Below are positions 13,222 through 63,306 of a stretch of 64,000 nt of DNA, piece by piece. Each line of letters begins with the position of its first letter. Position 1 is the stretch's first letter. The stretch covers positions 60,831,754 through 60,895,753 of the forward strand of contig NC_061508.1 in assembly GCF_022539505.1 (NCBI RefSeq), read 5' to 3'. Position numbers and translations under genes: made by a program. This stretch comes from Lolium rigidum (taxonomy: Eukaryota > Streptophyta > Magnoliopsida > Poales > Poaceae). The notes beneath the pieces are model-generated. The model searched no databases. It saw only the letters and a list, made by a program, of their open reading frames with translations, and was not told where the DNA came from.

Positions 13222-14929
13222 TGATACGTCTCCGACGTATCGATAATTTCTTATGTTCCATGCCACATCATTGATGATATCTACATGTTTTATGCATACT
13301 TTATGTCATTATTATGCGTTTTCCGGAACTAACCTATTGACGAGATGCCGAAGGGCCAGCTTCGTTTTCTCGCTGTTTTTGGTTTCGGAAATCCTAGTAA
13401 GGAAATATTCTCGAATCGGACGAAATCAACGCCCAAGCATCCTATTTTTCCACGAAGCTTCCGTAACACCCGAGAACCGTCGAGAGGGGCCACAGGGGCC
13501 CACACATGGTGGCGGCGCGGCCCGGGAGGGGCGCGCCGCCCTAGTGTCCGGTGGCCCTGCACCCCTTCCGACCTTGCCCTTTCGCCTATTTAAAGCCTCC
13601 GTCGCGAAAACCCCGACACGTTCGATGAAACCGGAGAAAACCTTCCGGAGCCGCCGCCATCGCGAAGCCAAGATCCGGGGGACAGAGTCTCCGTTCCCGC
13701 ACGCCGCCGGACGGGGAAGTGCCCCCGGAAGGCTCCTCCATCGACACCACCGCCATCTCCATCAACGCTGCTGCCTCCCATGAGGAGGGAGTAGTTCTCC
13801 ATCGAGGCTAAGGGCTGTACCGGTAGCTATGTGGTTAATCTCTCTCCTATGTACTTCAATACAATAATCTCATGAGCTGCCTTACATGATTGAGATTCAT
13901 ATGATGATGCTTGTAATCTAGATGACATTGTGCTAGTCAAGTGGATTTTACTTATGTGATCTCCGGAGACTCCTTGTTCCACGTGTGTAAAGGTGACAGT
14001 GTGTGCACCGTGTGGGTCTCTTAGGCTATATTTCACAGAATACTTATTCACTACTATGAATGGCATAGTGAAGTGCTTATTTATATCTCTTTATGATTGC
14101 AATGTGTTTTGTATCACAATTTATCTGTGTGCTACTCTAGTGATGTTATTAAAGTACTTTATTCCTCCTGCACGGTGTAATGGTGACAGTGTGTGCATCG
14201 TGTAGTACTTGGTGTAGGCTATGATTGTGATCTCTTGTAGATTATGAAGTTAACTATTGCTATGATGGTATTGATGTGATCTATGCCTCCTTTCGTAGTG
14301 TGAAGGTGACAGTGTGCATGCTATGTTAGTACTTGGTTTGGTTATGTTGATCTGTCATGCACTCTAAGGTTATTTAAACATGAACATCAAATATTGTGGA
14401 GCTTGTTAACTCCGGCATTGAGGGTTCGTGTAATCCTACACAGTTAGTGGTGTTCATCATCCAACAAGAGGGTGTAGAGTCTAGCATATATCTATTTTTT
14501 CTGTTATGTGATCAATGTTGAGAGTGTCCACTAGTGAAAGTATGATCCCTAGGCCTTGTTCCTAAATATCGCTATCGCTGCTTGTTTACTCGTTTTATCG
14601 CATCTGTACTTCCTGCAATATTACCACCATCAACCACACGCCAGCAAGAACTTTTCTGGCGCCGTTACTACTGCTTATATTTATTCATACCACATGTATT
14701 TCACTATCTCTTCGCCGAACTAGTGCACCTATTAGGTGTGTTGGGGACACAAGAGACTTCTTGCTTTGTGGTTGCAGTGGTTGCATGAGAGGGATATCTT
14801 TGACCTCTTCCTCCCTGAGTTCGATAAACCTTGGGTGATCCACTTAAGGGAAACTTGCTGCTGTTCTATAAACCTCTGCTCTTGGAGGCCCAACACTGTC
14901 TACAAGAATAGAAGCACCCGTAAACATCA
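13222..14929 (+). repeat. 5' LTR of non-autonomous element copy 1
   Basis: It contains a TATTTAAAG promoter motif at 13587-13595 and a GC-rich leader with GAGCCGCCGCCATCGCGAAG-like sequence. An internal CTGGCGCCGTT phrase (about 14658-14668) resembles the primer binding site. It pairs with 18428-20141; most mismatches lie at CAG/CTG versus CG sites. Confidence 0.92.
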
Positions 14930-14939
14930 AGCACTTTTC

Positions 14940-15026
14940 TGGCGCCGTTGCCGGGGAGGAAAGGTAAACGGCACACACACACCGGACCCCGGCAACTAGC
15001 CACTTTTCTGGCGCCGTTGCCGGGGA
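14940..15026 (+). other. Duplicated tRNA-Asp-type primer binding site
   Basis: TGGCGCCGTTGCCGGGGA, complementary to the 3' end of plant tRNA-Asp, occurs at 14940-14957 just inside the LTR. It occurs again at 15009-15026, each copy within an about 69-bp repeated block (ACTTTTC before, GGAAAGGTAAA after). A third, degenerate version (TACTTTTCTGTTGCCGTTG) follows near 15066. Only the first is at the normal distance from the LTR. Confidence 0.8.
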
Positions 15027-15161
15027 GGAAAGGTAAAAGGCACTCATACTCCGGTCCCAGGTAAAGTACTTTTCTGTTGCCGTTGTGTGTGTGCTTGAAG
15101 ATATTTCCTTTAGATCCTGCAATTGCATCTTTTTGTTTCTTGTTTACACTAGTTAGGCATA

Positions 15162-15887
15162 ATGGACAACAATGAGCTTCTTATTCTATTTCTTGATTTA
15201 AGACATGGATGGTTTGATGCGAAAATTAAAAAACCTATGGAACATATTAGTATGAACGCTTTGAACACCATTGTTGCTAATGATATGGAAAATTCTAAGC
15301 TTGGGGAAGCTGGTTTTGATGAGCATGATCTTTTTAGTCCACCAAGCATTGAGGAGGAAATTTACTTTGATGATACTTTGCCTCCTATTTATGATAATTA
15401 TAATGATATTGGTCTTTTAGTACCGCCTGTTATGGAGGATAAATTTGATTATGATTACAATATGCCTTCTATATTTGATGATGAGAATAATAATGATAGC
15501 TACTTTGTTGAATTTGCTCCCACTACAACTAATAAAATTGATTATGCTTATGTGGAGAGTAATAATTTTATGCATGAGAATCATGATAAGAATGTTTCAT
15601 TTCATAGTTATATTGTTGAGTTTGCTCATGATGCTACTGGATATTATTATGAGAGAGGAAAATATGGTTGTAGAAATTTTCATGTTACTAAAACACCTCT
15701 CTTTTTGCTGAAAATCTTGAAGCTGCACTTGTTTTATCTTTCTATGATTGTTGCATTATGCTTCATGAATTTGTTTATTTACAAGATTCCTATGCATAGG
15801 AAGCATGTTAGGCTTAAATTTGTTTTGAATTTGATTCTTGATGCTCTCTTTTGCTTCAACTACTATTTCTTGCGGGTGCATCATTAA
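15162..15887 (+). CDS. ORF of unknown function in the non-autonomous element (241 aa)
   Basis: The frame starts MDNNELLILFLDL and ends YYFLRVHH. The first 150 residues are acidic with Asn/Asp-rich runs (SPPSIEEEIYFDDTLPP, FDDENNNDSYFVEFAP). The last 75 contain two hydrophobic stretches (KLHLFYLSMIVALCFMNLFI and LNLILDALFCFNYYFL) around a basic HRKHVRL, as in a small membrane-anchored protein. It has no zinc knuckle, protease DTG, RT or integrase motif. The sister element (56476-57124) encodes the same protein with in-frame indels plus one frameshift, so the reading frame seems to have been under constraint. I do not recognise a family. A gag-like or envelope-like role would be speculation. 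Confidence 0.6.
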   Translation: MDNNELLILFLDLRHGWFDAKIKKPMEHISMNALNTIVANDMENSKLGEAGFDEHDLFSPPSIEEEIYFDDTLPPIYDNYNDIGLLVPPVMEDKFDYDYNMPSIFDDENNNDSYFVEFAPTTTNKIDYAYVESNNFMHENHDKNVSFHSYIVEFAHDATGYYYERGKYGCRNFHVTKTPLFLLKILKLHLFYLSMIVALCFMNLFIYKIPMHRKHVRLKFVLNLILDALFCFNYYFLRVHH

Positions 15888-16587: not shown

Positions 16588-16608
16588 GGGGATGCCCAAG
16601 GCATCCCC
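16588..16608. other. Perfect 9-bp-stem hairpin inside the non-autonomous element
   Basis: GGGGATGCC, a CAA loop and GGCATCCCC form a perfect stem-loop, preceded by AAGCTT. The same 21 bases occur in the sister element at 57822-57842. A second AAGCTTGGGGATG lies about 60 bp upstream and a third is the polypurine tract itself. Confidence 0.75.
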
Positions 16609-18427: not shown

Positions 18428-20141
18428 TGATACGTCTCCGACGTATCGATAATTTCTTATGTTCCATGCCACATCATTGATGATATCTACATGTTTTATG
18501 CATACTTTATGTCATTATTATGCGTTTTCCGGAACTAACCTATTGACGAGATGCCGAAGGGCCAGTTCCTGTTTTCTGCTGTTTTTGGTTTCAGAAATCC
18601 TAGTAAGGAAATATTCTCGGAATCGGACGAAATCAACGCCCATCATCCTATTTTTCCACGAAGCTTCCAGAACACCCGAGAACCGTCAGAGAGGGGCCAC
18701 AGGGGCCCCACACATGGTGGCGGCGCGGCCCAGGAGGGGGGCGCGCCGCCCTAGTGTCTGGTGGCCCTGCACTCTTCTCGACCTTGCCCTTTCGCCTATT
18801 TAAAGCCTCCGTCGCGAAAACCCCGACACGTTCGATGAAACCGAGAGAAAACCTTCCCGAGCCGCCGCCATCGCGAAGCCAAGATCCGGGGGACAGGAGT
18901 CTCCGTTCCGGCACGCCGCCGGACGGGGAAGTGCCCCGGAAGGCTCCTCCATCGACAGCACCGCCATCTCCATCAACGCTGCTGTCTCCCATGAGGAGGG
19001 AGTAGTTCTCCATCGAGGCTAAGGGCTGTACCGGTAGCTATGTGGTTAATCTCTCTCCTATGTACTTCAATACAATAATCTCATGAGCTGCCTTACATGA
19101 TTGAGATTCATATGATGATGCTTGTAATCTAGATGTCATTGTGCTAGTCAAGTGGATTTTACTTATGTGATCTCCGGGAGACTCCTTGTCCCACGTGTGT
19201 AAAGGTGACGAGTGTGTGCACCGTGTGGGTCTCTTAGGCTATATTTCACAGAATACTTATTCACCGTTATGAATGGCATAGTGAAGTGCTTATTTATATC
19301 TCTTTATGATTGCAATGTGTTTTGTATCACAATTTATCCGTGTGCTACTCTAGTGATGTTATTAAAGTAGTTTATTCCTCCCGCACGGTGTAATGGTGAC
19401 AAGTGTGTGCATCGTGTAGTACTTGGTGTAGGCTATGATTGTGATCTCTTGTAGATTATGAAGTTAACTATTGCTATGATGGTATTGATGTGATCTATGC
19501 CTCCTTTCGTAGTGTGAAGGTGACAGTGGTGCATGCTATGTTAGTACTTGGTTTGGTTATGTTGATCTGTCATGCACTCTAAGGTTATTTAAACATGAAC
19601 ATCGAATATTGTGGAGCTTGTTAACTCCGCATTGAGGGTTCGTGTAATCCTACACGCTTAGTGGTGTTCATCATCCAACAAGAGGGTGTAGAGTCTAGCA
19701 TCTATCTATTTATTCTGTTATGTGATCAATGTTGAGAGTGTCCACTAGTGAAAGTATGATCCCTAGGCCTTGTTCCTAAATATCGCTATCGCCGCTTGTT
19801 TATCGTTTTACCGCATCCGTACTTCCCGCAATATTACCACCATCAACCACACGCCAGCAAGCACTTTTCTGGCGCCGTTACTACTGCTTATATTTATTCA
19901 TACCACCTGTATTTCACTATCTCTTCGCCGAACTAGTGCACCTATTAGGTGTGTTGGGGACACAAGAGACTTCTTGCTTTGTGGTTGCAGGGTTGCATGA
20001 GAGGGATATCTTTGACCTCTTCCTCCCTGAGTTCGATAAACCTTGGGTGATCCACTTAAGGGAAACTTGCTGCTGTTCTATAAACCTCTGCTCTTGGAGG
20101 CCCAACACTGTCTACAAGAATAGAAGCACCCGTAGACATCA
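18428..20141 (+). repeat. 3' LTR of non-autonomous element copy 1
   Basis: It begins TGATACGTCTCCGACG directly after the purine tract and ends GTAGACATCA before the AGCAG target copy. It is full length against the 5' LTR. Confidence 0.92.
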
Positions 20142-20950
20142 AGCAGCAGATGAAGGATGAGCAGGATTCCAGGCGTGCGGCAGCGGCCACAATCGATAAG
20201 AAAGAAGGCGTCCTCTGTGAATCCATCAAGGATTTATTGGGTCAAACTCACGACACATAGTTTCTTTTTTGGTACTTCTTTACTGGCTATTGATCTGTCT
20301 TCTTTTCAGAGGCCGCCAATATAACCGTCACTCGACGCCATCAGCTCCGGGAGGATTCTACAGCCGATGCTCTGTCGCTTGCTGCTGAGTCTAACGTCCA
20401 AGTCCTTGGACGTCTGCAAAAGACTAAAGGAGCGTTGTCGAGGCTATAGATCTTCCCGAAGCAGAAGCAGGACAAGAGTCTTGGCAAGATGGCGGATGCT
20501 TTTCTCGTTGATTCTTCCGAACCTGTGGAGGTATTGAAACGCCGCTCCCACTTGTTTGGGGCGGTCCTTACTTTCCAACTGCTGATGGGTCATGGGATGG
20601 GGTCTAACTTGGAGAAGTTATCTAAGGCATTGCCTGTTGGTGATGACAACAATTTAGTCGACCTTGAGCCTTTCAAAAGATCGGCAGTAACTTGTGCCAA
20701 TCAACTCCTGAAGCTGGTAGATGAAGCACAGGCCAAGCCTATTCCTGAATCTGCCCCTGGATCATAATCGGCGAACCCTTGATATCTTGCCTGACTTATT
20801 GTAAATAAGATCAACCATATTTTGACATAGTCCTGTTTTATTTCGGCTCTGTTGCCAATTCTAACATCCTTTTGAATGTAACATATATGCCACGCGCTCC
20901 CGATAAGAGTTTTATGTTAATGTTGTTCTGAACTAAGGAATGTACTGCAG

Positions 20951-21815: not shown

Positions 21816-21892
21816 AATTCATCATCGGTGTTGGCACTCCCTTGGTTTGTTCCAAGCTTGGGGGAGTGCCGCGGTATCACATCATCACTATC

Positions 21893-24800
21893 TGTGGTGA
21901 CCCGGCATACCACTGCATGGTGTAGTATGCAAGTCTGATATAACACCAATGAAACACCGTTCCACTAGTATTATATCGCTCAGAGTGGTACAACAGAAAC
22001 ATATGCGGGTCCAAGGCATGTCTATAGAATTACAACACGTACTCTTTACAAAAGATCATCACAGACCTCCTACTTTACAATGAGGTAAAACTGCAAATAA
22101 ACTCCAGAAGAACGACTCGTGGTCTAATCCTAACACGAACTCTACTTGTAGAGTATTTAATTAGCTACAGAGGCTATGAATAGATTCTAGCTAAATAGGA
22201 GCTAAGTTCAGGAAGCTAGTTCCTTTCTATTGCTAATCTAGGTTTCTCCTTGTTGGATGTGGTATCTGACTCCTCTGATAGGGTCCTGTCTCTTGAAGTA
22301 GTTGTTGACTCCTCGGCCTTCGAGTTGCACTGTAGATCCTCCTTCGATGCCTCCATATCTAAGCAGGGGATTTAAGAGTGGGATGAGTACGAGCGTACTC
22401 AACAAGTTCATTATAGGAAAGAGGTGTTTAATGCACTAGCTACAGCATTAGACCGTAAAGTCTAATACCAATGCAGGTTTTCATAACCATTTCTTCAAAA
22501 GGTTGCTTTTATTCAGAAGAACTATGTCCGTCAGCCTTCACCGGTTTACTATAACTTCATGGAGCTCCTTTCCGGCAGCGTTCGCAGTTCCATATCCCGG
22601 AATAGGGAGTGACAGGTCACGGTTCTTTACACTCTGCAGAGGTGTGTTGCTTTACCCATAAGAGATCTTAACCTTGGTGCCAACCGAGTTGCAGGCTCGT
22701 CAACACTTCCTTTGGTGTGAGGCCCGGTATAAGGTCTAGCCAATCATGTTCCTCCGCTACCTCGAACACCCACCCTTTGTTGCATGCCCCGACCCTGGGT
22801 CCTCGCCGGTCCCATTATTCCCATAGATTTCGGGGTGGACCCCGACCACGACGACGAGTCTGGGATCGAACCAAACTCCTTCGCCGGTAGCTGCAACCCA
22901 TCATAGACCGCAATACCGTGGGGACTTAAGGCTTCCCCAGCCTACCGCTTGTTCTTCGAGCGACAAGTGTCTACGGACTATGCCGTGGGAACTTAAGGCT
23001 TCCCCAGCCTACCGCTTGCCCTGACAGATACAAGTGTCTACGGTAAAGCGCATCCGTTGATGAACGAGAGGTGGAAACACTTTTGACTACTCCGTCCCAC
23101 TCCGGATCTTATGGTTAACACGGGTATTACGGCACAAGAATCACTGGACGACATTTGTTGTTAATCCTAGATGGATATTAACCCTTGCAATGGAACCTCC
23201 ACCATATCAACACAATCCATGGTTCCATTACCCACCACATAGTCATATTCATAGTTATGAAAGTAGTGGTTTTGGTTTTTATGCAATAGTGATAATCATA
23301 TTACTTTGCAAGTAATTTGATAAAGATACTCAAATGACATGAGCAAGCGATGAACTTTCCTTTCTTGACTGCAAGATTATGCAGTCAAGGTCTTCGATAC
23401 GCAATAACTCCAAATTCTGAAATAGCAGCATCGTCCGATAAGGACGATGTTTAAAAGATTGGCAAGGATGCAATAATGCATAAGTATGAGATGCAATCGC
23501 TCTAAGCGTGACCTAACCCCGATGATTTAGGATTAGTGAATTGGAATGATTTGTTTAGGATGTGTTGCACTTTTAGGGTGATTCACAAACAAAGTTCTTA
23601 TTTAGGTGTGATTACATGGTATCATGAACAGGTCTGTGAATATATAATAACAATAAGATTAGTAGCACACAACTATAACATTTGGTATAATCTTAACATG
23701 TAATGAATAGTGGTTGGTTTTAACACTACATGGCATGGTTAATGATTGATTATTATATACTTAAAAAGAATAACTTTTGAAGAACATATTCTTCAATAAA
23801 GGACAAGTATGATAATTAGGTTGGTGGTTCTATGGTTGACTATGGTTTCATGTAATTGTTGGAGTAAGTATTAGATGGATCCCCAACAATGTTGGATTCA
23901 TCAACACCTAGGGCTTGTAAATTTGAGTTAAGCCTAGGCATCCTAAGCAAGTATTTATACATGGTTGCTATCAAGGTTAATTCATCTCGATCGGTGATTG
24001 CTGGCTAGGGTTTATAGGTTCTTATAAGCAGGGTTGGTGATGCTTCTTTAATTACTTCAAAAGAATAACTTTTGAAGAACATACTTCTTAAGTAATAAGA
24101 AGTATCTCAATTGGAGTTGAGGTGGTCTAGGTTTTACTGTTGGTTTTATTAGGTAAGGAATAATTGGCTCCTAAATAGGATGGTTGATAAGTATCCAACA
24201 CTAGTAGGGTTTAGTGGAATATGGTTATGTAATGTTCAAGATTTGGCATAGTTGCTCATGAGGTTCATCACATTGATGTGACGCTAAATAGGAATGAATA
24301 GGAATGATGGTTTTGGGTAATAGGGTCTAGGGTTTTCACTTGGTTGACCCTACTTGATTAGTTGTGTCTGATGAGGATGAACACATGGGATACTAATTAG
24401 TAGTGATAGGGTTCTACATTTTATGTGGACATAGATATGTCTTTAGTTGCTAATTATGGCTCTATGGTAATGGAGTAACATGATCACATGTTCTAACCTA
24501 GGGTTTAGGTTAGAATTAAATTAAGATTCACATGTAATCATGGATCTAGGGTGTGATGCATAATTGAATTAGGGTCTTAAAGTTCCACATAAAATTATGA
24601 GGTTGTGTTCTTTATTCAATATGGAACTAGGGTTTCCTAATTACTTTATAGGTCTATGATTAATAACTTCATTATCAAGTTGAAGTTATTAACAATGTTG
24701 AAATAAAATTTAGTTTTGGATTTGACATTTATTATTATTTTTAAACAATTAATAATTAGGGTAATTACTAATTAGGGTTTAAATTCTAATATTAAGGATT

Positions 24801-27800
24801 AAATAAGTTATAATTAAAGAAAATTAGTGTTAATGTTTTCTTTATTTACCTTACTGGTTTTTATTTATTTTAGATAGTTTTCCTAATTATTGAAGTTTAA
24901 TTGAATTTAGAATTAATATAAAAGGCTTAAATAACAAGGATTAAATAGTTGAATTTTTATTAAAAATAAAAATTCATTTTATATTTTTATTGCATAGGGT
25001 TTTCTTTTCTAAGAATTTTAATATCTCATTTACATTTTTCTGACTTAAATTGGATTTTCTAAATTTATTTGAAGTTGCAGGTGTTATTGTATTTTGAAAT
25101 AAATGAAAAGAAGTGCTAAATACACACTGCTGTTTCTACCCGTGGTCACTGACCAGTGGGCCTATGTCCACGTCAGCCGCCACGGTGTCATTGACCAATG
25201 TCAAAATTGAAACTCTGGCAGGTGAGTTCACTGCCGGCGAGGATTGACGACGGCGTTGAGGCTACGGGCGATTTACGGGCGCGCGGTGATGCTCTAGCTG
25301 TTCTACGCGTCACGGGAAGTCTAACGGTGGTAGCGCCGCCTGATTTTGGTCGCCGACGCTTGCCCGACGGCAAGTCCGAGCGGCGGAGCGCGCAGGTCTA
25401 CGGCGACGACATGATCCGAGAGCTAGGGAGAGAATGGAGTGGGCCACGAGATGCGGGAGCTCACCGGGAACTTGTAGGAGTGCTCGAGGCGAGGCGGAGG
25501 TGGCCGGACGGCGACGATTTCGTCCATGGCCGCGGCGGCGGTGGTCGGAAGAAATGGCTAAATTCGTCATATCCGGGGCTTCCTAGCTTGCACGCGTCGA
25601 TGAGGTGAACGAGGAGAAGATGGCGGTGACGGGAGCATCCACGGCGAGGCTTGGGACTGCCTCAGTCGCCGGCGAGGATGAACGGCCGGGCGAGCTAGGG
25701 TTTCGAAATTGGGGAGGAATGGGCAGAGAAGAGGAAAATGGAGGGCTCCCGCGCGCTTTATAGCTTCTAGGCCGTGCGCTGGCGGTCAATATCGTCGGCG
25801 ACGACCACGGGACGTGGCCTTCACAGCGCCGTGGCGCTCTCCTGGACATCGACGCGTGGCGAAGACGAAGGTGGCGACCTCGTCTTCGGTCTTATCCAAC
25901 GAAGGGGTATTTGGGCTGGGTCTGTGATGGTCTGGGCCGAGTGTTGGGCTGCTGCTGGACTCTTGTGTTGGGCTCGGCAGCTGGGCTGCTGCGGCCAGGT
26001 AAGCTCTTTTCCCTCTCTTTCTTTTATCTATTTCCTTTTTCTGTTTTATAATTCTGTTTAGAATTCAAATTTGAATTCTTTTCTATTTTGCAGGTCTTAC
26101 TTATTTGAAACATATAAGGATTAGTTCAAGATACTGCAAGGTCTTGAGTGGTGTATTTGCAAATTTAATGTGGCACCATAACATTGGTTTACTTATTATT
26201 ATTGGTATTTGAATTTCAATACCCCTATGTACATGAATTTGAATATTATCTTTGGGAATATTCAAATTGTTTTCCAATTGGTAGTTTTCTTACTTAGTAA
26301 TATTTCTTGTTTTATTTGGTATTGCTTTGCAAGAAATAAGTTGCCAAGTAAGGTTTGTTTATGGAATTCTATTAAGTAAGTGACTAAATGGCATGATTTC
26401 ATGTGCTAAAATATCTCTAAGGATTTGATCTCTCATTTGAGATTGTTGGTCACTTACACATGAATTTATGTGAGCTCTTGCTTGTTAAGGTCTTGTGAGG
26501 TTTATCTTAATTTCTATTTCAAGTTTAATACTTGTACTATTATTTTAATAACACCTTGAAATACTTAGAGTAGGTATTACTCTCATCAGGGTTTGGTTTT
26601 GATTCTAATGATAAGTGGTTGATTACCACTTATGGGTTTGAATTATTAAATATAGCACAAGGTTAATCTTTGGTTAATAATTGAAACCAAAGATATAGTT
26701 TGTGAGCAATTTCTAAGGTTCTAATGAGATTCACCTAATGGCAATTGGTTTGAATCTCATCTATGGCCTGGTTTGTTTTATGATCACCATAGTGATACAT
26801 AAACTAAGGTTGAGATTTAATTATAGGTTGTAGAGATGAGGTGACACCATATTGTATCTGCTAGGGTTCAATCTTCCCTAACCATGGCAATATGGTTACT
26901 TGCTTCATATTTTATGTGCTTCCCTAATTACTAAGGATTTGAGAATTGGTTTTTATCTTCTACCAATTAGCTTCTCTTAGTATCCTTAATTAATCATTAA
27001 AGTAACTATAATAGTTATAGTTTTTTTTTATAGTTAACTTTGGTCATATGGATATATGGTTTCTCACCATATGAAGTATAGTGTTTAACTCTAAGGTTTC
27101 CTTAGGTTCATTAATTGATGAATGAATGAGAAAATAGATGTGGTAAGATTCTACTTATTATCACCAATTGATTTACAATTATAGGTTGGGATATAAGCCT
27201 AGGGTTGCTTATTAGTTACCTCCCTATAATTTCATGTGGTGAATGATATCTACTTATCTTATTAGGTTTTAACTTATCCTCACATACCTCAAGAGCATGA
27301 TTATGGATTAGGCATGATCAACTTTTTCTTAATATCTCTACCTCAAGTTCTTAGGGTTTATGATCATCACTCAATTTATAATGATCAAGGTTTGGCTTCC
27401 TAAGGTACTTCTCATTAACTAGGTTTCTCACTTCCATGATCAAGCATTGTCTTGTTCAACTAGGGTATAGTACTTCTAATATTTGTTTAAGTAGCTAAGC
27501 TAAAGATTCAATTGTCTAACTTAATTGAATTAGTTTCCTCCTTACTTTATCAATTCATGGATATCATCTTATTCCATGTGATATTAGGTTATCTCACCAC
27601 TCCAAGGGAAATGGTTTACAACCTAATACTTAAGTTCATTGGTTGTCCTTTATTCTTAAATAGGTAATTCTAAGATTGGTATGAATGGTCTCACTCATTT
27701 GGGAAGGGCTTTAATTCTAACCTGAGGTTAGGCTTTATAGAGATTGATGTGATCATCAATGTCTTTGTTAAATATAAATGGTTTATCTCTCTAGGAATTG

Positions 27801-28460
27801 TCTTGGATAATATCCTAGGGTTTCTCTTGAAGATAATGTTTTGAATACTTGGATGCATATCCAAGGTTTAGCTTAAGGTTTGTTATTGCTTCTCTAATAA
27901 TTATAGTACATCTCTCACCTCTCTAGGTTTGATGTATAACTATTTGGAATAGAGAAGAATGTGTATTTCTAGAGTTGATCTCCTTGTCATGTTTCCCAGA
28001 ATGAAGTAAAAGAAATACCATGAGGTTCATGGTAGGATCATGGATTAGTTTAAAACATGGAGAAGATAAGGGAAGAATGGTTTCTCCATTTTATTCTTAC
28101 TTGGTTTGTAATTGAACAGATGTTCATATGTTATGACAAGGATTACCAGCTTATAATCTTTTATAAGATCAAGCAATTGATCATTGAGTAAAGTGTTGTT
28201 GTGTTAATTATTAGTTCCATTTGATCTAACCCCTTAGATCAAATTCATCTCTACCCAAAACAAGGTTTCAGCAAGGTCACATTGAGGTTTATAACGCTTG
28301 ACTTGATGAGCTACTTCAATTCCACCAAGGTCAAGTGAAACTTCGATATCGTGGACTGTTTTACTTTAAAGCGCGAAAATTCCCAGGATTTTCTATGCAT
28401 GAATGCAATGCACACATCTGTTTCCTCTATTTTTGTAACCCCATTACCTGGGATATTACA
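21893..28460 (-). repeat. 3' LTR of the LARD-like element (6568 bp)
   Basis: It is AT-rich except for a GC-rich island at about 25130-25990. It aligns end to end with 31372-43033 apart from the Mutator-like insertion. Single differences cluster at CG, CAG and CTG sites. Confidence 0.92.
25130..25990 (-). promoter_or_regulatory. GC-rich promoter-and-leader island in the LARD LTR
   Basis: The minus strand reads CTATAAAG at 25756-25763, followed by a leader with AAACCCTAGCTCGCCCGGCC, a phrase typical of plant 5' untranslated regions. GC-rich sequence then runs to about 25200. This would be the LTR promoter and start of R, leaving about 2.7 kb of U3 upstream. The second copy is at 39705-40565 (TATA at 40328-40335). 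Open frames in it are not conserved between the copies, so I do not call a protein. Confidence 0.5.
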
Positions 28461-31371
28461 GTCTCTACCCCTTAAACTAAACTTCGTCCTCGAAGTTTGA
28501 ACTCTCTCACGTTTCAGAGTGTGGATCTGACTTGTGCAGACTACGACTTTTCTCAAACTCCGTATTGTTCTTACTGGATATAATTGAATACATCCCTTAT
28601 CCAGATTCTTCCTGGAATCCATTAGTATCTGTCTCTGAACATTAGTTCTTACTCCAGTTCTATGATTTTCTTCCTGGAATCTAATAATACCTGTCTCTGA
28701 ACCATGGCTTCTAACTTTAATTATTTGATTTCTTTCAATATCATAATCTTATTTCCTTTCTCATTGAAGATTCAAGGATTGGGACTTCTTCTGTTGTTGC
28801 TAGTCTTAACTGAAGACTAATTTGATAACCTACTCCTAATTGGTAAATAGGTCTTTGTTTTCCCTTACTACCAAACTGCAATAATGGTACTTGTAACGTA
28901 CTTACCATGGAAATGGTCGTGATGGTTTATTCCTCTAAGAATGGATTAGACTCATTTAGTCCATCCAATCATGGTTTATAATTGATACCTATAACTCTTT
29001 AGATTCATTTAGGTTCCATGAAAGGAATCATTCTACTAGTCTTTGATTTTGGTATAGTCAATTTCCTTCGGTCTTTGGTCTTCTTGAGCTGTATTTGGTC
29101 TATGGTATTTTCTTCGTTCAACTTCTTTATGCTTAAATTACTTGAGCTTTCGTACTTCTGAGTAAATACTACTCACTTTCTCAAGTTATAGTCCACTTCT
29201 TACTTCCTCGAGGTATGAACCTCGGCTTCTGGTCTGACTTCCTTCTGAAAGTATTGTTCATCAATCTTATGAAAATAAGATCGAACTTCCTCTCAGTTCA
29301 GACCTTCTTCTTTTATTATGCTCAAAGTATTGAGTTATTGTACATCGAACTCAATCTTTACTCTACCCCTTATAGTTTTCTTATGGTCTTCAACTCCTTT
29401 TCTTCCAACTATTGGACTTATAATTAGAATATTGGTATAGGTCTTGTTTATAATTTATATTCCTCTAAGGTTTTGCGAAGAAACTTTGTGGTGTATCCAC
29501 TCAATGGTGGACAACCAATGTGAATCCTTTGACTAAATGATTATAGATCTAGCTATTTAGCTGACAAGATTTTTATTTGTTCACAAACTTTTGTTACAAC
29601 TAATTAAATCGTGGACTATTTGTAATACCAACTGATACCAGCTGTGGTTATCATACCAACTGTGGCTATTTGATATCTAAAAATGGATTCTATTATAGGT
29701 TCTGATTAACTGGACGAGACATCTTCTACTCCATCTCGCAGTATTGATCTTATACCAATCGTGGTCTTTTGATATCAACTATGATCTTCTTATATCTGCT
29801 ATGGTTTCATAGGTTATCTTCCTTCCTTCAAGGTTTATTTTGCAGAAAAACCACTAGCTGACACTATGAATATAGTATCCTAAGTGATTTCCCATGCATT
29901 CCCTCTTCTATATTAACTATGGATCTGCGTGAGCTTCACCATAATCATCATATTTCTCACCTTCATGCTTCTTCCGCACTAAAGTACTCCTCTGTTGAGG
30001 TAAAGCATGAGCTTTGATTGGTACTTCCTTCTGAATATTGTGGTTGCTTCCCACAACTTTGTTTCCTTTATCTGTGAACCTTCATCTGGTCTTCAGAATA
30101 TTCCGAATTCGTCACTTCCTCACACGAATACCATTACCCTCTAGATCTATAGCATCAAGTAAGGACTTGATATTGCAACATGCATTTGCATATCGAAGTC
30201 AAACTTCATGTATGGATCTAATCAAACAATGAAAATCCAATAAAATCCAAGAAGATTCAGCTTTGTGCATATAATACACACCATCATAAGCCTGAATATA
30301 CTAGTTGAGTAAGACATCTCTAAACATCAGACTGAGATGTGTAGTATATAACACCACGTAAGATAGGTTTATATCGTGATACTTAGCACGAGTATATGGG
30401 ATTCTACTGTTTGTCTCAACATATACCTTAATTGCACAATTGCAATGAGATAAACTTGAAACAAAGTGGTCTAGGATAGTTGTGGTTAACCTAATTTTCT
30501 TTGGAAGTACTAACTTAGCTTCCATTTTGTTGAGGACTATTTCAATGATATGTCTGGTTCTAACATCACTATTCTAGACACATAACTATTGGAATATAGC
30601 TCCTATACTTCCAAGTTATTGTATCGTAAGGCTATGGACCTAATGTTCTTGACACAGTTCCCATGGTTTTTGGAACATAATTCTTACACTATTGTTTAGC
30701 ACTTGGCTTCTTATTGTACTCCTCCAAAATACTTATAATGTTCTATTCCATCACATAATGATTCTCAGGTGAATCATATATGATTAACAACTCTACCATG
30801 TAAGTAATCATATTTTATTCATATCTCTCTTCCTTATCTCCCATGATTGACTCATCATGGTCTATACTACCTCATATGACTCATAGTTATCACTTACTAT
30901 CAATTGTTTCACATGTCTAGATAGTTTTACTTACTCATTACTTAACTTGGTCTACATCTTCTATTAGGATATCTTAATTATCTTCATCAATTGATTTACT
31001 CCTATTACATGTCTGAATAATTCTTACTTAATCATAACTTGTGTTGGTACACATCTTCCAATAGGATATCTTCCTTATGGTTGTATCCTCTCTTTGGACT
31101 ACCATGTATTGTATACCAACTGTGATCTACCCATCTATTGTTTAGGACTTAATTGTGTGCTATATGTTTGGGATTAGCTAACTAACTTAGGAAAGATAGG
31201 GAAGAAATGTTGACTTAAGTGTGTCAGGATTATTCTCAAGTGAATATCCATCTCAAGTCATATGCAGTATTTGGTTTACCTAGGACAACTTCCTATAGAC
31301 ACTACCCATCCTATAGGTCTCCTTTGAAGGGTTTTAATCCTAGGGTCAAAGCATTTGCTCTGATACCAAGC
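28461..31371 (-). other. Non-coding interior of the LARD-like element
   Basis: About 2.9 kb of AT-rich sequence with no frame above about 115 codons and no gag or pol motif on either strand. A purine-rich minus-strand tract (GGGGTAGAGAC) abuts the left LTR. Phrases like ATACCAACTGTGG recur (29622-29790, 31110) and echo the primer-site/LTR junction. It may act as a packaging or dimerisation region, which is inference only. Confidence 0.6.
31357..31368 (-). other. Primer binding site (initiator tRNA-Met type) of the LARD-like element
   Basis: The minus strand reads TGGTATCAGAGC, the canonical plant initiator-Met primer site, 3 bases from the right LTR (31372). It fixes the minus orientation. 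Confidence 0.9.
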
Positions 31372-37285: not shown

Positions 37286-37293
37286 TTTATAGA
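37286..37293 (+). promoter_or_regulatory. TATA-like box of the gene carried by the Mutator-like element
   Basis: TTTATAGA lies about 126 bases upstream of the ATG at 37419, and a pyrimidine-rich leader (CTCTCTCGTCACTCTCACTC and later CCTCTCCCTCTCC) follows. This is a typical grass promoter and 5' untranslated layout. Confidence 0.5.
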
Positions 37294-37418
37294 CGCCTCC
37301 TCGCATCGTCTCTCGTCACTCTCACTCGCTCACGCATCGCCAACTCTCTCACGTCCCATCATCTTCTCCAAAGCAAAAACCCTCTCCCTCTCCCTCTTCC
37401 TCTTCCTCCGCCGGAGAG

Positions 37419-47943: not shown

Positions 47944-50034
47944 CTATGGGAAGGCTTTTGATCGTCTAATGATTCGTCCCGCTTCTACTGGATCCTCCGG
48001 CAACTCCTGCTTTGTCAGATACGCTAGGAACGGCTTGGTCCACAGTGGCTCGAGGAGGAGGACTTGTTCGACAGGAGGAGTTGGAGGTTCTTCGGCGGCT
48101 TGCTGCGGGCTCGCTTCCGATGTGTCAGCCGACGGTTTTGGAGGTATCGACACCTTCTCTTTTATCGATCGTTGAATAATGACTTCGTAGAACACTCCGT
48201 CTGGGATGGGGGAGCACATGGACCCGATATTCGCCAGAGTGTCGGCTTCCTCGTTACTGGCTCTGCCGATATGTTTGAGTTCGCACCCTTCGAATTTGGC
48301 TTCCATGTTTTGGTACAACTGTCGGTAAGCAATCATGTTATCGCTGACTGCGTCACACAGATTCATCGACTGTTGTACTACCAAGTTTGAGTCTCCATAG
48401 ATTTCCAGGCGAGTTGCCCCACATGCCTTCGCCATCTTCATTCCATGCAACAATGCCTCGTACTCTGCCTCGTTATTCGTTGGCAGGGGGAAATTCATAC
48501 GTAGTATGTACCTCATCTTATCTCCCTGTGGTGATATCAATACTACCCCTGCTCCTGCACCTGTGCTCCGTTTCGATCCGTCGAAGTACATTATCCATGA
48601 TCCCGACATATCGGGTGCTACTGGTGTCTGTGACTGGATCCAATCTGCCACGAAATCTGGGAGGATCTGGGATTTTATCGCTGTTCGATTAACGTAAGTT
48701 ATATCGTGTGGTGCTATCTCGATGGCCCATTGAGACACTCGACCTGTAGCCTCTGGATTGGTCATTATGTTCTTCAGTGGCGCTTCGCTTACGACGATAA
48801 TCGGGTTCTCCGTGAAGTAGTGCCGTAACTTGCGGGCTGACCTCCATACTGCGTACGCCAGCTTCTGATGGTGGGGGTACATCTGCCTTGCAGGCGTGAG
48901 CACCTCACTGAGGTAATAAACGGGCCTCTGCACACCATGAACTCTCCCTGCTTCTTCTCGTTCGACGACCAAAACACTGCTAAAGACTTGTGTTGTTGCG
49001 GCTATGTACATAAGCAATGTCTCTTTCTCACGCGGAGTTACGAGGACTGGGGAAGTCGACAAGATTTTCTTCAGGTTGTCGAAGGACTCCTGCGCCTCCT
49101 CTGTCCACTCGAACTTTTCTGACTTTTTCATCAAGTTGTAGAAGGGCAGAGCTTTTTCCCCTAGCTTGGCGATGAATCTGCTAAGCGCTGCTAATCGTCC
49201 TGCCAACTGCTGCACTTGGTGCAGATTCTTTGGCGGCTCCATGTCGAGAATGGCTTTGATCTTCAAGGGGTTGGCTTCAATTCCTCTGGCTGAAATGAAG
49301 TACCCGAGTACTTGTCCTCCTGGCACTCCGAAGAAACATTTTTTGGGATTCAACTTGATCTTATACCTGTCTAGGTTGTCGAAAGTTTCCCGTAAATCAT
49401 CGATGAGAGTGGCTACGTGCTTCGTTTTCACCACGATGTCGTCGATGTAGACTTCAATGTTCCTCCCAATCTGCTCTCCAAGGCAAGCTTGCATGCAACG
49501 TTGATAAGTTGCTCCTGCGTTTTTCAACCCAAAAGTCATGACGTTGTAACAGAAAACACCGTGCGGGGTGATGAACGCGGTTAGCTCCTGGTCTTCTTTC
49601 TTCAGCTTAATCTGATTATACCCGGAGTATGCATCAAGAAAGGAGAGACGATCGCATCCGGCTGTGGAGTCGACTATCTGGTCTATGCGAGGCAGCGGGA
49701 AGTGATCTTTTGGGCAGTGCTTATTAAGGATGGTGTAATCGATGCACATGCGGAGGGCGGTCGTGTCTTTTTTCGGCACCATAACGGGATTAGCCACCCA
49801 TTCGGATTCATTAAGCTCTCGAATAAATCCTGCCTTGCGGAGTCGACTAACTTCTTCGCCAATTGCTCTTCTCTTTGGCTCGGAAAATCGGCGCATTGAC
49901 TGCTGTACTGGTTTGGCTGTCGGGTCAACATTGAGGGTGTGCTCAGCGAGTTCCCTGGGGATACCTGGCATGTCGGATGGTTCCCATGCAAATATCTCCC
50001 AGTGCTCACGGAGGAACTCGATGAGCGCGCCTTC
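47944..50034 (-). pseudogene. Reverse transcriptase with dual RNase H, Tat-lineage gypsy
   Basis: One open frame of about 697 codons. RT motifs run from KAGFIRELNESEWVANPVMV through CIDYTILNKHCPKDHFPLPR and LSFLDAYSGYNQIKL to the active site YIDDIVVK. A first RNase H/connection domain follows (LLMYIAATTQVFSSVLVVER, HHQKLAYAVW). A second, archaeal-type RNase H follows that: WIMYFDGSKRSTGAGAGVVL, NNEAEYEALLHGM, LEIYGDSNLVVQQ, ASNEEADTLA. The extra RNase H is diagnostic for the Tat clade. The frame is open here but is cut off upstream by a stop at 50035-50037 and downstream by a frameshift, so the polyprotein is broken. Confidence 0.92.
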
Positions 50035-54571: not shown

Positions 54572-56221
54572 TGATACGTCTCCAACGTATCGATAATTTC
54601 TTGTGTTCCATGCCACATTATTGATGTTATCTACATGTTTTATGCACACTTTATGTCATATTCGTGCATTTTCTGGAACTAACCTATTAACAAGATGCCG
54701 AAGTGCCAGTTCCTGTTTTCTGCTGTTTTTGGTTTCAGAAATCCTAGTAACGAAATATTCTCGGAATCGGACGAAATAAACGCCAAAGTTCCTATTTTCA
54801 TCGGAAGCATCCAGAACACCCGGGAAGAATCGGAGGGGAGCCCCGGGGGCCCCACACCACACCCCGGCGCGGCCAAGGGGGCGCCCCCTAGGGTGTGGGC
54901 CCCCTTCGACCTTCTGCGCCGCCTCTCCGCCTATATAAAGCCCCCGGATCGAAAACCCTTACACGATTGACGAAAACCACGAAAACCTTCCGGAGCCGCC
55001 GCCATCGCGAAGCCAAGATCGGGGGACAGGATCTCGTTCCGGCACCTGCCGGAGCGAGGAAGTGCCCCGGAAGGCTTCTCCATCGACACCGCTGCCATCT
55101 CCACCGCCATCTTCATCACCGCTGCTTGCTCCCATGAGGAGGGAGTAGTTCTCCATCGAGGCTCGGGGCTGTACCGGTAGCTATGTGGTTCATCTCTCTC
55201 CTATGTGCTTCAATACAATAATCTCATGAGCTGCCTTACATGATTGAGATTCATATGATGATGCTTGTAATCTAGATGTCATTATGCTAGTCAAGTGAGT
55301 TTTACTTATGTGATCTCCAGGAGACTCCTCGTCCCACGTGTGTAAAGGTGACGAGTGTGTGCACCGTGTGGGTCTCTTAGGCTAGATTTCACGGAATACT
55401 TATTCACTCGTTGAATGGCATAGTGAGGTGCTTATTTATATCTCTTTATGATTGCAATGTGTTTGTATCACAATTTATCTATGTGCTACTCTAGTGATAT
55501 GTTATTAAAGTAGTTCTATTCCTCCCGCACGTGTGTAAAGGTGACGATGTGTGCACCGTGTTAGTACTTGGTTTGTGCTATGATCATGATCTCTTGTAGA
55601 TTATGGAGTTAACTATTGCTATGATAATATTGATGTGATCTATTCCTCCTACATATGCATGAAGGTGACAGTGTGCATGCTATGCTAGTACTCGGTTTAG
55701 TCTATTGATCTATCTTACACTAAAGGTTACTTAAACATGAGCATTATTGTGGAGCTTGTTAACTCCGGCATTGAGGGTTCGTGTAATCCTACGCAATGTG
55801 TTCATCATCCAACAAAAGTGTAGAGTATGCATTTATCTGTTCTGTTATGTGATCAATGTTGAGAGTGTCCACTAGTGAAAGTGTAATCCCTAGGCCTTGT
55901 TCCTAAATACTGCTACATTACTACTGCTTGTTTACTGTCCTGGGCAGAGCACTTTTCTGCCGTTGCTACTACTTATTCATACCACGTGTATTTCACTATC
56001 TCTTCGCCGAACTAGTGCACCTATTAGGTGTGTTGGGGACACAAGAGACTTCTTGCTTTGTGGTTGCAGGGTTGCATGAGAGGGATATCTTTGACCTCTT
56101 CCTCCCCGAGTTCGATAAACCTTGGGTATCCACTTAAGGGAAACTTGCTTGCTGTTCTACAAACCTCTGCTCTTGGAGGCCCAACACTTGTCTACAAGAA
56201 TAGAAGCTCCCGTAGACATCA
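54572..56221 (+). repeat. 5' LTR of non-autonomous element copy 2
   Basis: It starts TGATACGTCTCCAACGTATC and ends GTAGACATCA, with the TATA motif CTATATAAAG at 54931-54940. Confidence 0.9.
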
Positions 56222-59724: not shown

Positions 59725-61378
59725 CGATACGTCTCCAACGTATCGATAATTTCTTGTGTTCCATGCCACATTATTGATGTTATCTACATGTTTTAAGCAC
59801 ACTTTATGTCATATTCGTGCATTTTCTGGAACTAACCTATTAACAAGATGCCGAAGTGCCGGTTCTGTTTCTGCTGTTTTTGGTTTCGGAAATCCTAGTA
59901 ACGAAATATTCTCGAATCGGACGAAATCAACGCCAAAGTTCCTATTTTCATCGGAAGCATCCGAACACCGGGAAGAATCGGAGGGGAGCCACGGGGCCCC
60001 ACACCACACCCCGGCGCGGCCAAGGGGGGGGGCGCCCCCCCCTAGGGTGTGGGCCCCCCTTCGACCTTCCTGCGCCGCCTCTCCGCCTATATAAAGCCCC
60101 TGGATCAGAAAACCCTTACACGATTGACGAAAACCACGAAAACCTTCCAGAGCCGCCGCCATCGCGAAGCCAAGATCTGGGGGACAGGATCTCTGTTCCG
60201 GCACCCTGCCGGAGCGGGGAAGTGCCCCCGGAAGGCTTCTCCATCGACACCGCTGCCATCTCCACCGCCATCTTCATCACCGCTGCTGCTCCCATGAGGA
60301 GGGAGTAGTTCTCCATCGAGGCTCGGGGCTGTACCGGTAGCTATGTGGTTCATCTCTCTCCTATGTGCTTCAATACAATAATCTCATGAGCTGCCTTACA
60401 TGATTGAGATTCATATGATGATGCTTGTAATCTAGATGTCATTATGCTAGTCAAGTGAGTTTTACTTACGTGATCTCCGGAGACTCCTCGTCCCACGTGT
60501 GTAAAGGTGACAGAGTGTGTGCACCGTGTGGGTCTCTTAGGCTAGATTTCACAGAATACTTATTCACTGTTGAATGGCATAGTGAGGTGCTTATTTATAT
60601 CTCTTTATGATTGCAATGTGTTTGTATCACAATTTATCTATGTGCTACTCTAGTGATGTGTTATTAAAGTAGTTCTATTCCTCCCGCACGTGTGTAAAGG
60701 TGACAGTGTGTGCACCGTGTTAGTACTTGGTTTGTGCTATGATCATGATCTCTTGTAGATTATGGAGTTAACTATTGCTATGATAATATTGATGTGATCT
60801 ATTCCTCCTACATATGCATGAAGGTGACAGTGTGCATGCTATGCTAGTACTCGGTTTAGTCTATTGATCTATCTTACACTAAAGGTTACTTAAACATGAG
60901 CATTATTGTGGAGCTTGTTAACTCCGGCATTGAGGGTTCGTGTAATCCTACGCAATGTGTTCATCATCCAACAAAAGTGTAGAGTATGCATTTATCCGTT
61001 CGTTATGTGATCAATGTTGAGAGTGTCCACTAGTGAAAGTGTAATCCCTAGGCCTTGTTCCTAAATACCGCTACATTACTACTCGCTTGTTTACTCGTCT
61101 CGGGCGAGCACTTTTCTGCCGTTGCTACTACTTATTCATACCACCCGTATTTCACTATCTCTTCGCCGAACTAGTGCACCTATTAGGTGTGTTGGGGACA
61201 CAAGAGACTTCTTGCTTTGTGGTTGCGGGGTTGCATGAGAGGGATATCTTTGACCTCTTCCTCCCTGAGTTCGATAAACCTTGGGTATCCACTTAAGGGA
61301 AACTTGCTGCTGTTCTACAAACCTCTGCTCTTGGAGGCCCAACACTGTCTACAAGAATAGAAGCTCCCGTAGACATCA
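59725..61378 (+). repeat. 3' LTR of non-autonomous element copy 2
   Basis: It is full length against 54572-56221 and ends GTAGACATCA before the CTGGG target copy. Differences from its partner again include CAG versus CG sites (TTCAGAAAT versus TTCGGAAAT; CATCCAGAAC versus CATCCGAAC). Confidence 0.9.
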
Positions 61379-61525
61379 CTGGGTCATAAGGGATGTCATA
61401 TCACGGTACGAGAAAAGAGTACTTATCGGTAACGAGGTTGAACTAGGTATAGAGATATCGATGATCGAAACTCGGATAAGTAAAGTATCGCGTGACAAAG
61501 GGAATCGGTATCGTATGTTAATGGT

Positions 61526-62063
61526 TCTTTGTGTTCTAGGATCTCCATTGTGTTCTAGGATGAGGTCGTCGAGTCGCAGCATGTCCCTACCTCCAGCCAC
61601 CAATGGCAGGGTTGGGGTTTGGGTTGGAGTCGTGCGAGGACGTGAGTACGATGCCCCTCCTGCTTGGTGAACACGTCACCTCAGCTGCTTTTGGTGGCCG
61701 TCGTAGTAATCTAAGCATGGGAGGAGAACTCCAATACTTGCCTTGCCGAGTTTACAGGGAGATCGTTTGCCAAGCATATGTACATAAATAATAAAGGAGC
61801 TAAAGTTTCCACAGTTTTGTCTGTTTTAGTCCGGTGGCCCTTGATTTCGTTCGACGCGTTGCTATTTTCGTATCGCACGAGTCAGTTGATGGGAGTTCGA
61901 TCCGAACAGAGTGAGTATTGTAAGAACATACAACCTGGTGATATTGCCATAAATATATTCACGATAACTTATAGGAAGAAGTCAAAGAAGCATTATCTTT
62001 TACATTTCTTTTGAGGATCAAAAGACAGAAATACCTCTCCGAAACTTCTCAAGTAGAAAAAGG
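61526..62063. other. Unassigned DNA between the copia remnant and the CACTA element
   Basis: No gene or terminus is recognised. TGTGTTCTAGGAT occurs twice at 61529-61560. The last 90 bases (about 61950-62045) resemble 1836-1920 (GGAAGAAGTC(A/G)AAGAAGCATT, then TTCTTTTGAGGA and ACCTCTCC). Confidence 0.5.
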
Positions 62064-62569
62064 CATCACTGGTAGAAAAACGGCCATTGGTCGCGGTTCG
62101 CAACTGCCATTAGTCGCGGTTGCGCAACCGCGACCAATTATGCGCGACTAAAGGCCCCCCTTTAGTCGCGGTTCCTTACGAACCGCGACTAAAGGCCCGT
62201 CCACGTGGGCGGCGAGGCAGCGCCGGGGCGGAGGACCTTTAGTCGCGGTTCTTCTGGCCAACCGCGACTAAAGGCCTCCGCAGGTTTAGGGTTTAGCCCC
62301 CCCCCAAACCTGGTTTCTTTTTAATTTGTATTGTTTTATTTCTTTTGGGTTTTAATTTTGAAGGAGTTTCACATATTCTACGGTACTACATATATACATG
62401 CATATGAATGTACAATTTCAAACAAATTTGAAATTAGAACCAAAAAGAATTCAAGAGGAATATAGAATATATATTCAATATCGGATGACCATATACAATT
62501 TTGAACAAGTTTCCATACATAATTTAGTGCATATGAAGTTCTACGTCCTCTACATAGTGTTCTCCTCTA

Positions 62570-63306
62570 GGATCGATGACTTCCCTCGCGAACCATCCAG
62601 CTAGTTCCTCTTGAAGTGGTCGGAAGCGAGCTTCGGACTAAGCGTCTTCCGGAGGTTATTCCTCTTGATGTTGATCTCGGACGACTGGTCCCGCTCATTG
62701 GTGTATCTCCGGATCCTCTCACAAACATAGTATCCACATAGATTGGTCCCCGGTGGCTGAATATCCCCGAGTCCCGAGCACTCGCCCTTCTAAATTGTAG
62801 CTCTTTTTTGAATTCACCGACCTTTTCATCTACGAACCGTCTCCAAACCCGACGAGGCAAAGAAAATTAAATGAACAAGAGAGTTATTAATTAGTTACTT
62901 GATATTAGGAAATGATGAACGAAATAGGCCGATCGATATAGAGCGCAAATGAATGAAAACAATTACTTTTGCATCATTTTTCTCATGTCGGCCCAAAGCG
63001 CCGCATCCATATTCGAGAGAGTCGTGGACGAGAGCTGTGGAGGTGTGAAATTGAATAACCATCGGAATCCAGTGGAACCTGCGGACACGATACATGCACG
63101 ATCATGCATAACTCATCGATTAGCCACATACCATGCATGGAGTAAACAAAAGAGAATGTGCTCAAGACAGAAACACTCACCCAAAATGGTAAGGAAATAG
63201 AATATCACTTTTGAGTTCCTGTTTTCTAAGAAACCGCCACAGGTCTTCCTCCACGTCGGCGGGGTGGTGTTCTAACACATATGAATTAACGATGTGTGGG
63301 TCAATG
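62570..63306 (-). pseudogene. Ulp1/C48-type cysteine protease domain of the CACTA element
   Basis: The minus strand encodes PHIVNSYVLEHHPADVEEDL, WRFLRKQELKSDILFPYHFG, a GTGAGT donor at 63180, and from 63078 FHWIPMVIQF with the catalytic His. HDSL with the catalytic Asp follows, then (after a one-base shift) MDAALWADMRKMMQK. From about 62850 WRRFVDEKVGEFKKELQF follows, then in another frame LCGYYVC with the catalytic Cys. This His-Asp-Cys order is the Ulp1 SUMO-protease fold that many CACTA elements carry. Frameshifts and a stop break the frame. One shift is at CTCTCGAATATGG, where CTCTGAATATGG would restore the frame. Confidence 0.7.

What the first reader, a model, noticed from the sequence alone, without database searches (positions are those of the whole stretch)
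13222..63306. Systematic CAG/CTG versus CG(A) discordance between repeat copies: likely methylation-context base-calling artefact
In four LTR pairs or gene contexts the differences cluster at one motif type. LARD LTRs: CACTGCATGG versus CACTCGCATGG, GCTCAGAGTGG versus GCTCGAGTGG, ACAACAGAAAC versus ACAACGAAAC, GCTACAGAGGC versus GCTACGAGAGGC. Copy-1 LTRs: TTCGGAAAT versus TTCAGAAAT, GTCGAGAG versus GTCAGAGAG, TTCTCGCTG versus TTCTGCTG. Copy-2 LTRs show the same. Frameshifts in unrelated genes fit too: TTCGCACC where TTCTGCACC is expected and CACGGGCG where CACAGGGCG is expected (Mutator-borne gene), and CTCTCGAA where CTCTGAA is expected (CACTA protease). CAG, CTG and CG are the CHG and CG methylation contexts of plants. 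True deamination would give C-to-T changes, not length changes, so an error of a long-read base caller on methylated cytosine is the better explanation. If so, LTR ages and pseudogene calls here are inflated.
Basis: partly seen in the sequence, partly recalled or inferred. Interest (0 to 1): 0.82.

Follow-up and report, generated by a model that had tools for sequence, protein, structure and literature searches.

The report
Nanopore miscalls at methylated CAG sites
In this ryegrass-type DNA many differences between repeat copies look like reading errors in which the sequence CAG or CTG was written with a CG, most likely because the sequencer's software did not know the methylation mark that plants put on those sites; this makes repeats look older and genes look more broken than they are.

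Summary
Five repeat pairs give 153 difference events; 58 exchange CAG/CTG in one copy for CG in the other. Among 51 one-base indels 23 are of this kind (random placement: mean about 1.4, maximum 7 in 5,000 runs), and 10 of 15 multi-base changes (null mean 0.66). The change has a form: read on the CAG strand, 52 of 58 put a G straight after the C (CG, CGG, CGAG, CGT, CGA, CGC). An exon inside a Mutator element gives the direction: 7 of 10 differences from a Lolium perenne relative can be read as CAG/CTG turned into CG, 5 of them with little ambiguity. A host gene with 63 such sites shows no hit at protein level. Most likely these are nanopore base-calling errors at 5-methylcytosine in CHG context that survived polishing. 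Contrary evidence: the artefact is patchy; a Ty3 ORF and one repeat pair show none, the C1/C2 internal region few. No reads or methylation data were available, so platform and methylation are inferred. The kind of error is known; this exact signature I did not find in my searches.

The parts
13222..14933 (+). C1 element, 5' LTR (mate 18428-20145)
   Evidence: 96.9% to mate; 14 exchanges of 45 events
18428..20145 (+). C1 element, 3' LTR
21892..24788 (+). LARD LTR, first part, upstream copy
   Evidence: 98.4% to 31371-34263; 12 exchanges of 34 events
24780..28466 (+). same LTR, second part ('BIG'), upstream copy, joined to the first part; carries the empty Mutator target site
   Evidence: 99.1% to 39350-43040; 10 exchanges of 22 events
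31371..34263 (+). LARD LTR, first part, downstream copy
34264..39349 (+). Mutator-like element inserted in the downstream LTR copy; inverted ends 34257-34361 / 39252-39355; 9-bp target duplication TAAATTCTA
38215..38592 (+). exon inside the Mutator element; against the L. perenne LOC127304888 product it has 3 frameshifts and 7 residue changes; 7 of these 10 can be read as CAG/CTG -> CG
39350..43040 (+). same LTR, second part, downstream copy
54573..56221 (+). C2 element, 5' LTR (mate 59726-61378)
   Evidence: 96.9%; 22 exchanges of 42 events
59726..61378 (+). C2 element, 3' LTR
9820..10357 (+). R5 repeat (mate 51626-52163): contrast region, 0 of 10 events are exchanges and there is no indel
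2518..4666 (-). BAHD acyltransferase host gene in two exons, control: no frameshift, no Q->R, 63 CAG/CTG sites
47947..50034 (-). Ty3-type pol ORF, contrast region: 696 aa open, 78 CAG/CTG sites, no hit visible

Best explanation
The discordances are residual long-read consensus errors. In silenced grass transposons both strands of CAG/CTG commonly carry 5-methylcytosine (CHG methylation; established knowledge, not measured here). A nanopore base caller trained mainly on DNA whose 5mC lies in CpG reads the methylated C of mCAG and writes G as the next base, giving CG, CGG, CGAG, CGT, CGA or CGC in place of CAG. Short-read polishing repairs unique genes but not all repeats, so errors stay in transposons. 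Shown here: the exchange, its excess, its one-sided form, and (in one exon) its direction. Inferred: that the platform is nanopore, that those C's are methylated, how the caller errs, and that polishing explains where errors remain.
For: 58 of 153 events are CAG/CTG<->CG exchanges; 23 of 51 one-base indels against a null mean of about 1.4 and 10 of 15 multi-base changes against 0.66, six of them CAG->CGT. One-sided: oriented to CAG, length-changing and multi-base outcomes put the new CG at the C in 20 cases and at the G in 0 (12 plain losses of A are neutral; 3 unresolved and 1 other left out); substitutions are CGG 20, CCG 2 (sign test). Exon 38215-38592: 7 of 10 differences from P0122 can be read as CAG/CTG -> CG; the window has R where 35 of 37 and 36 of 37 aligned relatives have Q (columns 22, 31) and a frame break where 36 of 37 have C (column 46). 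Between the two C elements the CHG form is the one shared with the other element in 11 events, the CG form in 5, both in 2, neither in 17 (35 events). Host gene 0 of 63 sites visibly hit against 7 of 18 in the exon, Fisher P 9e-6 (or 5 of 16, P 2e-4, without the two CGA codons). 20 of the 51 one-base indels are homopolymer length changes, the other usual nanopore error (recalled). Nearest named relatives are Lolium and Festuca; Lolium assemblies built from nanopore reads with short-read polishing are in print (passages of PMC8358221, PMC12376112, PMC10940895, PMC9664059). Precedent: in a Klebsiella test genome about 70% of consensus errors of then-current ONT callers lay in CCAGG/CCTGG Dcm sites and a model trained on such DNA nearly removed them (passages of PMC6591954; that the Dcm 5mC is the C before AG/TG is recalled). 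Authors of a plant study name methylation as the likely reason for lower accuracy and for plant models (passages of PMC9749173).
Against: Patchy. C1/C2 internal region: 0 of 26 one-base indels, 3 of 57 compound events and 4 of 106 substitutions are exchanges, though C1's CAG/CTG are depleted there as in the LTRs. Ty3 ORF: 9.0 visible hits expected at the LTR rate (P 1e-4; 4.7 frameshifts, P 0.009), none seen; none of its 10 window-unique residues is of this kind. R5: 4.3 expected, 0 seen (P 0.014). The host gene's cleanness is expected under several explanations. Polarity by the second element is 11 to 5, not unanimous. The exon test rests on proteins; the ancestral codons are inferred, and two of the seven (window codon CGA) could also derive from CAA. 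Platform, reads and methylation could not be checked.
Confidence: 0.82

Rival explanations
1. Ordinary mutation: CpG/CHG deamination plus random small indels since insertion.
For: 22 of 58 exchanges are single substitutions, 20 of them transitions; CAG/CTG are depleted in the hit LTRs (0.42-0.64 of expectation; 1.05-1.08 in the host gene), as past CHG deamination would do. R5 and Ty3 differences look ordinary.
Against: Does not give length changes or repeated CAG->CGT; one-base exchange indels exceed chance about sixteen-fold; CG-changing transitions hit CAG/CTG in 20 of 23 cases against 30% expected; the exon has four Q->R changes, the reverse of deamination.
Confidence: 0.06
2. Long-read error at CAG/CTG that does not depend on methylation (a bias of pore or model for the k-mer itself).
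For: No methylation data were available; the context alone was measured.
Against: The host gene (63 sites) and Ty3 ORF (78 sites) show no hit at protein level, so the k-mer alone is not enough unless polishing removed the errors there. [quoted passage not shown]
Confidence: 0.09
3. A real mutational or editing process targets CHG sites in these transposons and inserts, deletes or replaces the base after C with G.
For: Motif and form are consistent over three independent LTR pairs and one exon.
Against: Several different products at one motif with homopolymer length changes alongside; no such process is known to me (recalled; no search made for one). In the 378-bp exon up to 7 of 10 differences would be of this one kind.
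Confidence: 0.03

Closest known systems
Dcm-site (CCAGG/CCTGG) consensus errors of nanopore base callers in enterobacteria (PMC6591954, passages seen)
   Same: Errors sit at methylated cytosine in a motif holding CAG/CTG; attributed to models not trained on that methylation; survive into the consensus.
   Different: Longer bacterial motif; the passages seen do not give the wrong letters, so the CAG->CG(N) form could not be compared.
Lower accuracy of generic nanopore base callers on native plant DNA; plant and species-specific models (PMC9749173, passages seen)
   Same: Plant methylation is named as a likely cause; remedy is retraining.
   Different: Its text has 0 occurrences of CHG, CHH or 5mC, and the passages seen give no base-level signature.
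Homopolymer length errors of nanopore consensus (PMC6591954, passages seen)
   Same: Also present here: 20 of 51 one-base indels are homopolymer length changes (runs of two or more counted).
   Different: Not tied to CAG/CTG.

Membership tests
Methylation-induced nanopore base-calling error | Errors concentrate at a motif that the organism methylates | tested here: inconclusive
   Concentration at CAG/CTG is met: first of all exchanges for one-base indels and multi-base changes, 23 of 51 vs null about 1.4. That this plant methylates the motif is established for plants in general (CHG), not tested here
Methylation-induced nanopore base-calling error | Direction: true motif lost, wrong letters gained | tested here: met
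   Exon: 7 of 10 differences readable that way, 5 with little ambiguity. LTR outgroup: 11 for, 5 against, 19 undecided of 35
Methylation-induced nanopore base-calling error | Absent from unmethylated DNA of the same assembly | tested here: inconclusive
   Host gene shows no visible hit at 63 sites (about 7.8 expected at the LTR rate, the sum of its two exons), but its methylation is unknown and polishing may explain it; some transposon stretches are clean too
Methylation-induced nanopore base-calling error | The error sites carry 5mC | not testable with these tools
   No methylome or raw signal
Methylation-induced nanopore base-calling error | Assembly built from nanopore reads | not testable with these tools
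   Window unnamed; relatives are Lolium/Festuca, for which nanopore assemblies are in print
Methylation-induced nanopore base-calling error | Corrected by accurate reads or amplified DNA | not testable with these tools
   No reads held
CpG/CHG deamination | C to T (G to A) changes without length change, from CG/CHG | tested here: not met
   36 of 58 exchanges are not single substitutions; in the exon the changes are Q to R, R to G or frameshifts

The most novel reading that the evidence does not exclude
The errors are a fossil methylome: because a G is written after the C only where mCAG was present, the CAG->CG(N) discordances between repeat copies in a finished nanopore assembly record CHG methylation, so hit stretches (LTRs, Mutator exon) and clean stretches (host gene, Ty3 ORF) could be told apart as CHG-methylated and not, without raw signal.
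Probability: 0.25. Interest if true: 0.6.

Novelty: new member of a known kind. Interest (0 to 1): 0.36.

Why it matters
If such errors are widespread in nanopore-based grass assemblies, LTR divergence, pseudogene calls and CG content of transposons are biased. Here, leaving out the exchange events lowers LTR divergence from 1.04 to 0.62% (LARD), 1.82 to 1.12% (C1), 1.28 to 0.49% (C2) and 0.52 to 0.25% (BIG), while R5 stays at 2.23% (true deaminations may be removed too, so the lower figures are lower bounds). Up to seven of ten differences that make a Mutator-borne exon look broken are likely artefacts. The signature is simple to screen for in any assembly: compare LTR pairs and count CAG/CTG<->CG length changes.

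Tried and rejected
Alignment artefact: rejected. Chance from base composition: rejected. Hot spots within CAG sites: the same CAG is hit in both C elements at alignment columns 165, 242 (with different outcomes) and about 798; by hand reckoning (no call) an error rate near 15% per site (58 exchanges against 320 remaining site copies) would give about two such coincidences, so I draw nothing from it. A<->C and G<->T changes in the LARD LTR looked frequent by eye; not pursued. Rfam gave nothing. Naming the exact assembly was not possible. In one paper search the term 'sup_plant' was read by the tool as 'supplant', so the plant model's file name was not truly searched.
Full report
Check of the observation. 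A self-comparison gave five repeat pairs long and alike enough to tabulate: LARD 21892-24788/31371-34263, C1 13222-14933/18428-20145, C2 54573-56221/59726-61378, BIG 24780-28466/39350-43040 and R5 9820-10357/51626-52163. Pairs of lower identity, the cross-comparisons between C1 and C2, and tandem arrays were left out of the main count; the C1/C2 internal region was counted apart. For BIG the first 10 bases, which overlap LARD, were dropped. The five pairs hold 153 difference events: 73 single substitutions, 51 one-base indels, 15 multi-base substitutions, 7 longer indels, 7 complex.

Enrichment. An exchange was defined as one copy having more CAG/CTG and the other more CG within two bases of the event. 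58 of 153 events qualify: 22 of 73, 23 of 51, 10 of 15, 1 of 7 and 2 of 7 of the classes above. For the one-base indels, random placement keeping the base gained or lost gives means of 1.3-1.5 and maxima of 6-7 in 5,000 runs. Outside homopolymers it is 23 of 31. A scan over all motifs puts CAG/CTG-for-CG first for one-base indels and multi-base changes, and second for single substitutions. Changing the alignment scoring does not alter the picture.

Form. Oriented so that the CHG form reads CAG, the outcomes are CGG 20, CG 12, CGAG 11, CGT 6, CCG 2, CGA 2, CGC 1, one other, three unresolved (58 in all). The new CG sits at the C of CAG in 40, at the G in 2, at both in 12 (plain loss of A). Leaving out substitutions it is 20 to 0 (sign test P 2e-6). 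So the rule is that a G is called directly after the C of CAG. If the C of CTG on the other strand were misread by the same rule, CCG, CACG or NCG products would appear on the CAG strand; only the two CCG cases do. I infer that mCAG, not mCTG, is misread, perhaps because A and G after 5mC are hard to tell apart.

Deamination. If the transitions were CpG decay, 30% of CG-changing transitions should make CAG or CTG (over 1,336 possible changes); 20 of 23 do (P 2e-8). So most of these substitutions probably belong to the same artefact.

Direction. An exon at 38215-38592, inside a Mutator element, has a 127-residue relative annotated in Lolium perenne (P0122, LOC127304888). A frame-aware alignment gives 10 differences. 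Seven can be read as CAG/CTG turned into CG: four Q->R (38278, 38305, 38498, 38584), one R->G across a codon boundary (38355) and two frameshifts (38350, 38469). At 38278 and 38305 the window codon is CGA, so the source may be CAG (CAG->CGA, seen twice in the LTRs) or CAA. One difference is a frameshift by loss of one base that is not at CAG/CTG (38504). Two are residues also seen in other relatives (38412 in P0121, 38578 in P0123). Codons of the relative are inferred, as only its protein is held. Columns 22, 31 and 46 are Q, Q and C in 35, 36 and 36 of 37 relatives of 110 residues or more (43 were found). Between the C elements, the CHG form is the one shared with the other element in 11 events and the CG form in 5 (two of those at one place, columns 798-799), both in 2, neither in 17 of 35.

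Controls. The BAHD acyltransferase gene at 2518-4666 (second exon 96% to a Lolium multiflorum protein) has 24 residue differences from that protein in 509, no frameshift and no Q->R; its stretches hold 63 CAG/CTG sites. Conversions that do not change a residue cannot be seen this way; 43 of the 63 sites would show a CGG/CCG-type change, and 3.2 plus 4.6 visible hits would be expected at the LTR rate. The exon has 7 of 18 hit (11 remaining plus 7), Fisher P 9e-6, or 5 of 16, P 2e-4.

Results against the reading. R5 has no exchange in 10 events where 4.3 would be expected (P 0.014). The Ty3 pol ORF has 78 CAG/CTG sites and is open; 4.7 frameshifts (P 0.009) or 9.0 visible hits in all (P 1e-4) would be expected, and none of the 10 residues that 13 chosen near relatives lack is of this kind. 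In the C1/C2 internal region 0 of 26 one-base indels, 3 of 57 compound events and 4 of 106 substitutions are exchanges. CAG/CTG are depleted in the hit LTRs (0.42-0.64 of expectation) and the Mutator exon (0.56-0.57), and nearer expectation in the host gene (1.05-1.08) and the Ty3 ORFs (0.83-1.26). This fits CHG methylation of the former, but the C1 body is depleted (0.47-0.50) and hardly hit. Patchy polishing, patchy methylation or both could explain this; I cannot tell which.

Mechanism. Most likely: nanopore base calling at 5mC in CHG context, with a model trained on DNA where 5mC is followed by G, so that G is written after mC. In a Klebsiella test genome about 70% of consensus errors of then-current callers lay in CCAGG/CCTGG and nearly disappeared after training on such DNA (PMC6591954, passages). 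A plant-specific model came with Guppy 6.1.2, and the authors who report it name methylation as a likely cause of lower accuracy (PMC9749173, passages). Lolium assemblies in print from nanopore reads with short-read polishing include Kyuss (Guppy 4.0.14, Flye, medaka, Pilon; PMC8358221, passages), Kyuss v2 (PMC10940895, passages), Rabiosa (PMC12376112, passages) and L. rigidum (PMC9664059, passages). I do not claim that the window comes from any of these.

Known or not. I searched the open-access library eight times, seven times with nanopore/methylation error terms and once for Lolium assemblies, and saw passages of nine papers; none was read whole. I saw no description of the CAG->CG(N) signature; the library lacks most subscription journals and preprints. 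The kind of error is known.

Consequences. LTR divergence falls by 39-62% when exchanges are left out, in the four LTR stretches. With a recalled rate of 1.3e-8 per site and year, ages go from 0.40 to 0.24 (LARD), 0.70 to 0.43 (C1), 0.49 to 0.19 (C2) and 0.20 to 0.09 (BIG) million years.

Structure noted. LARD and BIG are one 6.6-kb LTR: in the upstream copy they are contiguous; in the downstream copy a Mutator element with ends beginning GGGATTTC and a 9-bp target duplication TAAATTCTA lies between them.

Noticed in passing
21892-28466 and 31371-43040: The two repeats described as separate are one 6.6-kb LTR pair; a 5-kb Mutator-like element (inverted ends 34257-34361/39252-39355, 9-bp duplication TAAATTCTA) sits in the downstream copy, with the empty site kept in the upstream copy.
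   Followed up: yes
38215-38592: Mutator-borne exon of a Lolium gene family of unknown function (43 relatives found); apart from likely miscalls it is close to its L. perenne relative.
   Followed up: partly
21892-24788 versus 24780-28466: The two parts of one LTR differ in divergence from their mates (0.62 vs 0.25% after leaving out exchanges), which one insertion age does not readily explain.
   Followed up: no
15001-18427 and 56224-59725: The C1 body is strongly depleted in CAG/CTG (0.47-0.50 of expectation), yet the C1/C2 body comparison shows none of the one-base exchanges found in their LTRs.
   Followed up: partly
35670-36331: Array of about 13 units of 49 bp inside the Mutator element.
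   Followed up: no
63491-63632: Degenerate TTTAGGG-like repeat shortly after a 100-N gap (63341-63440).
   Followed up: no
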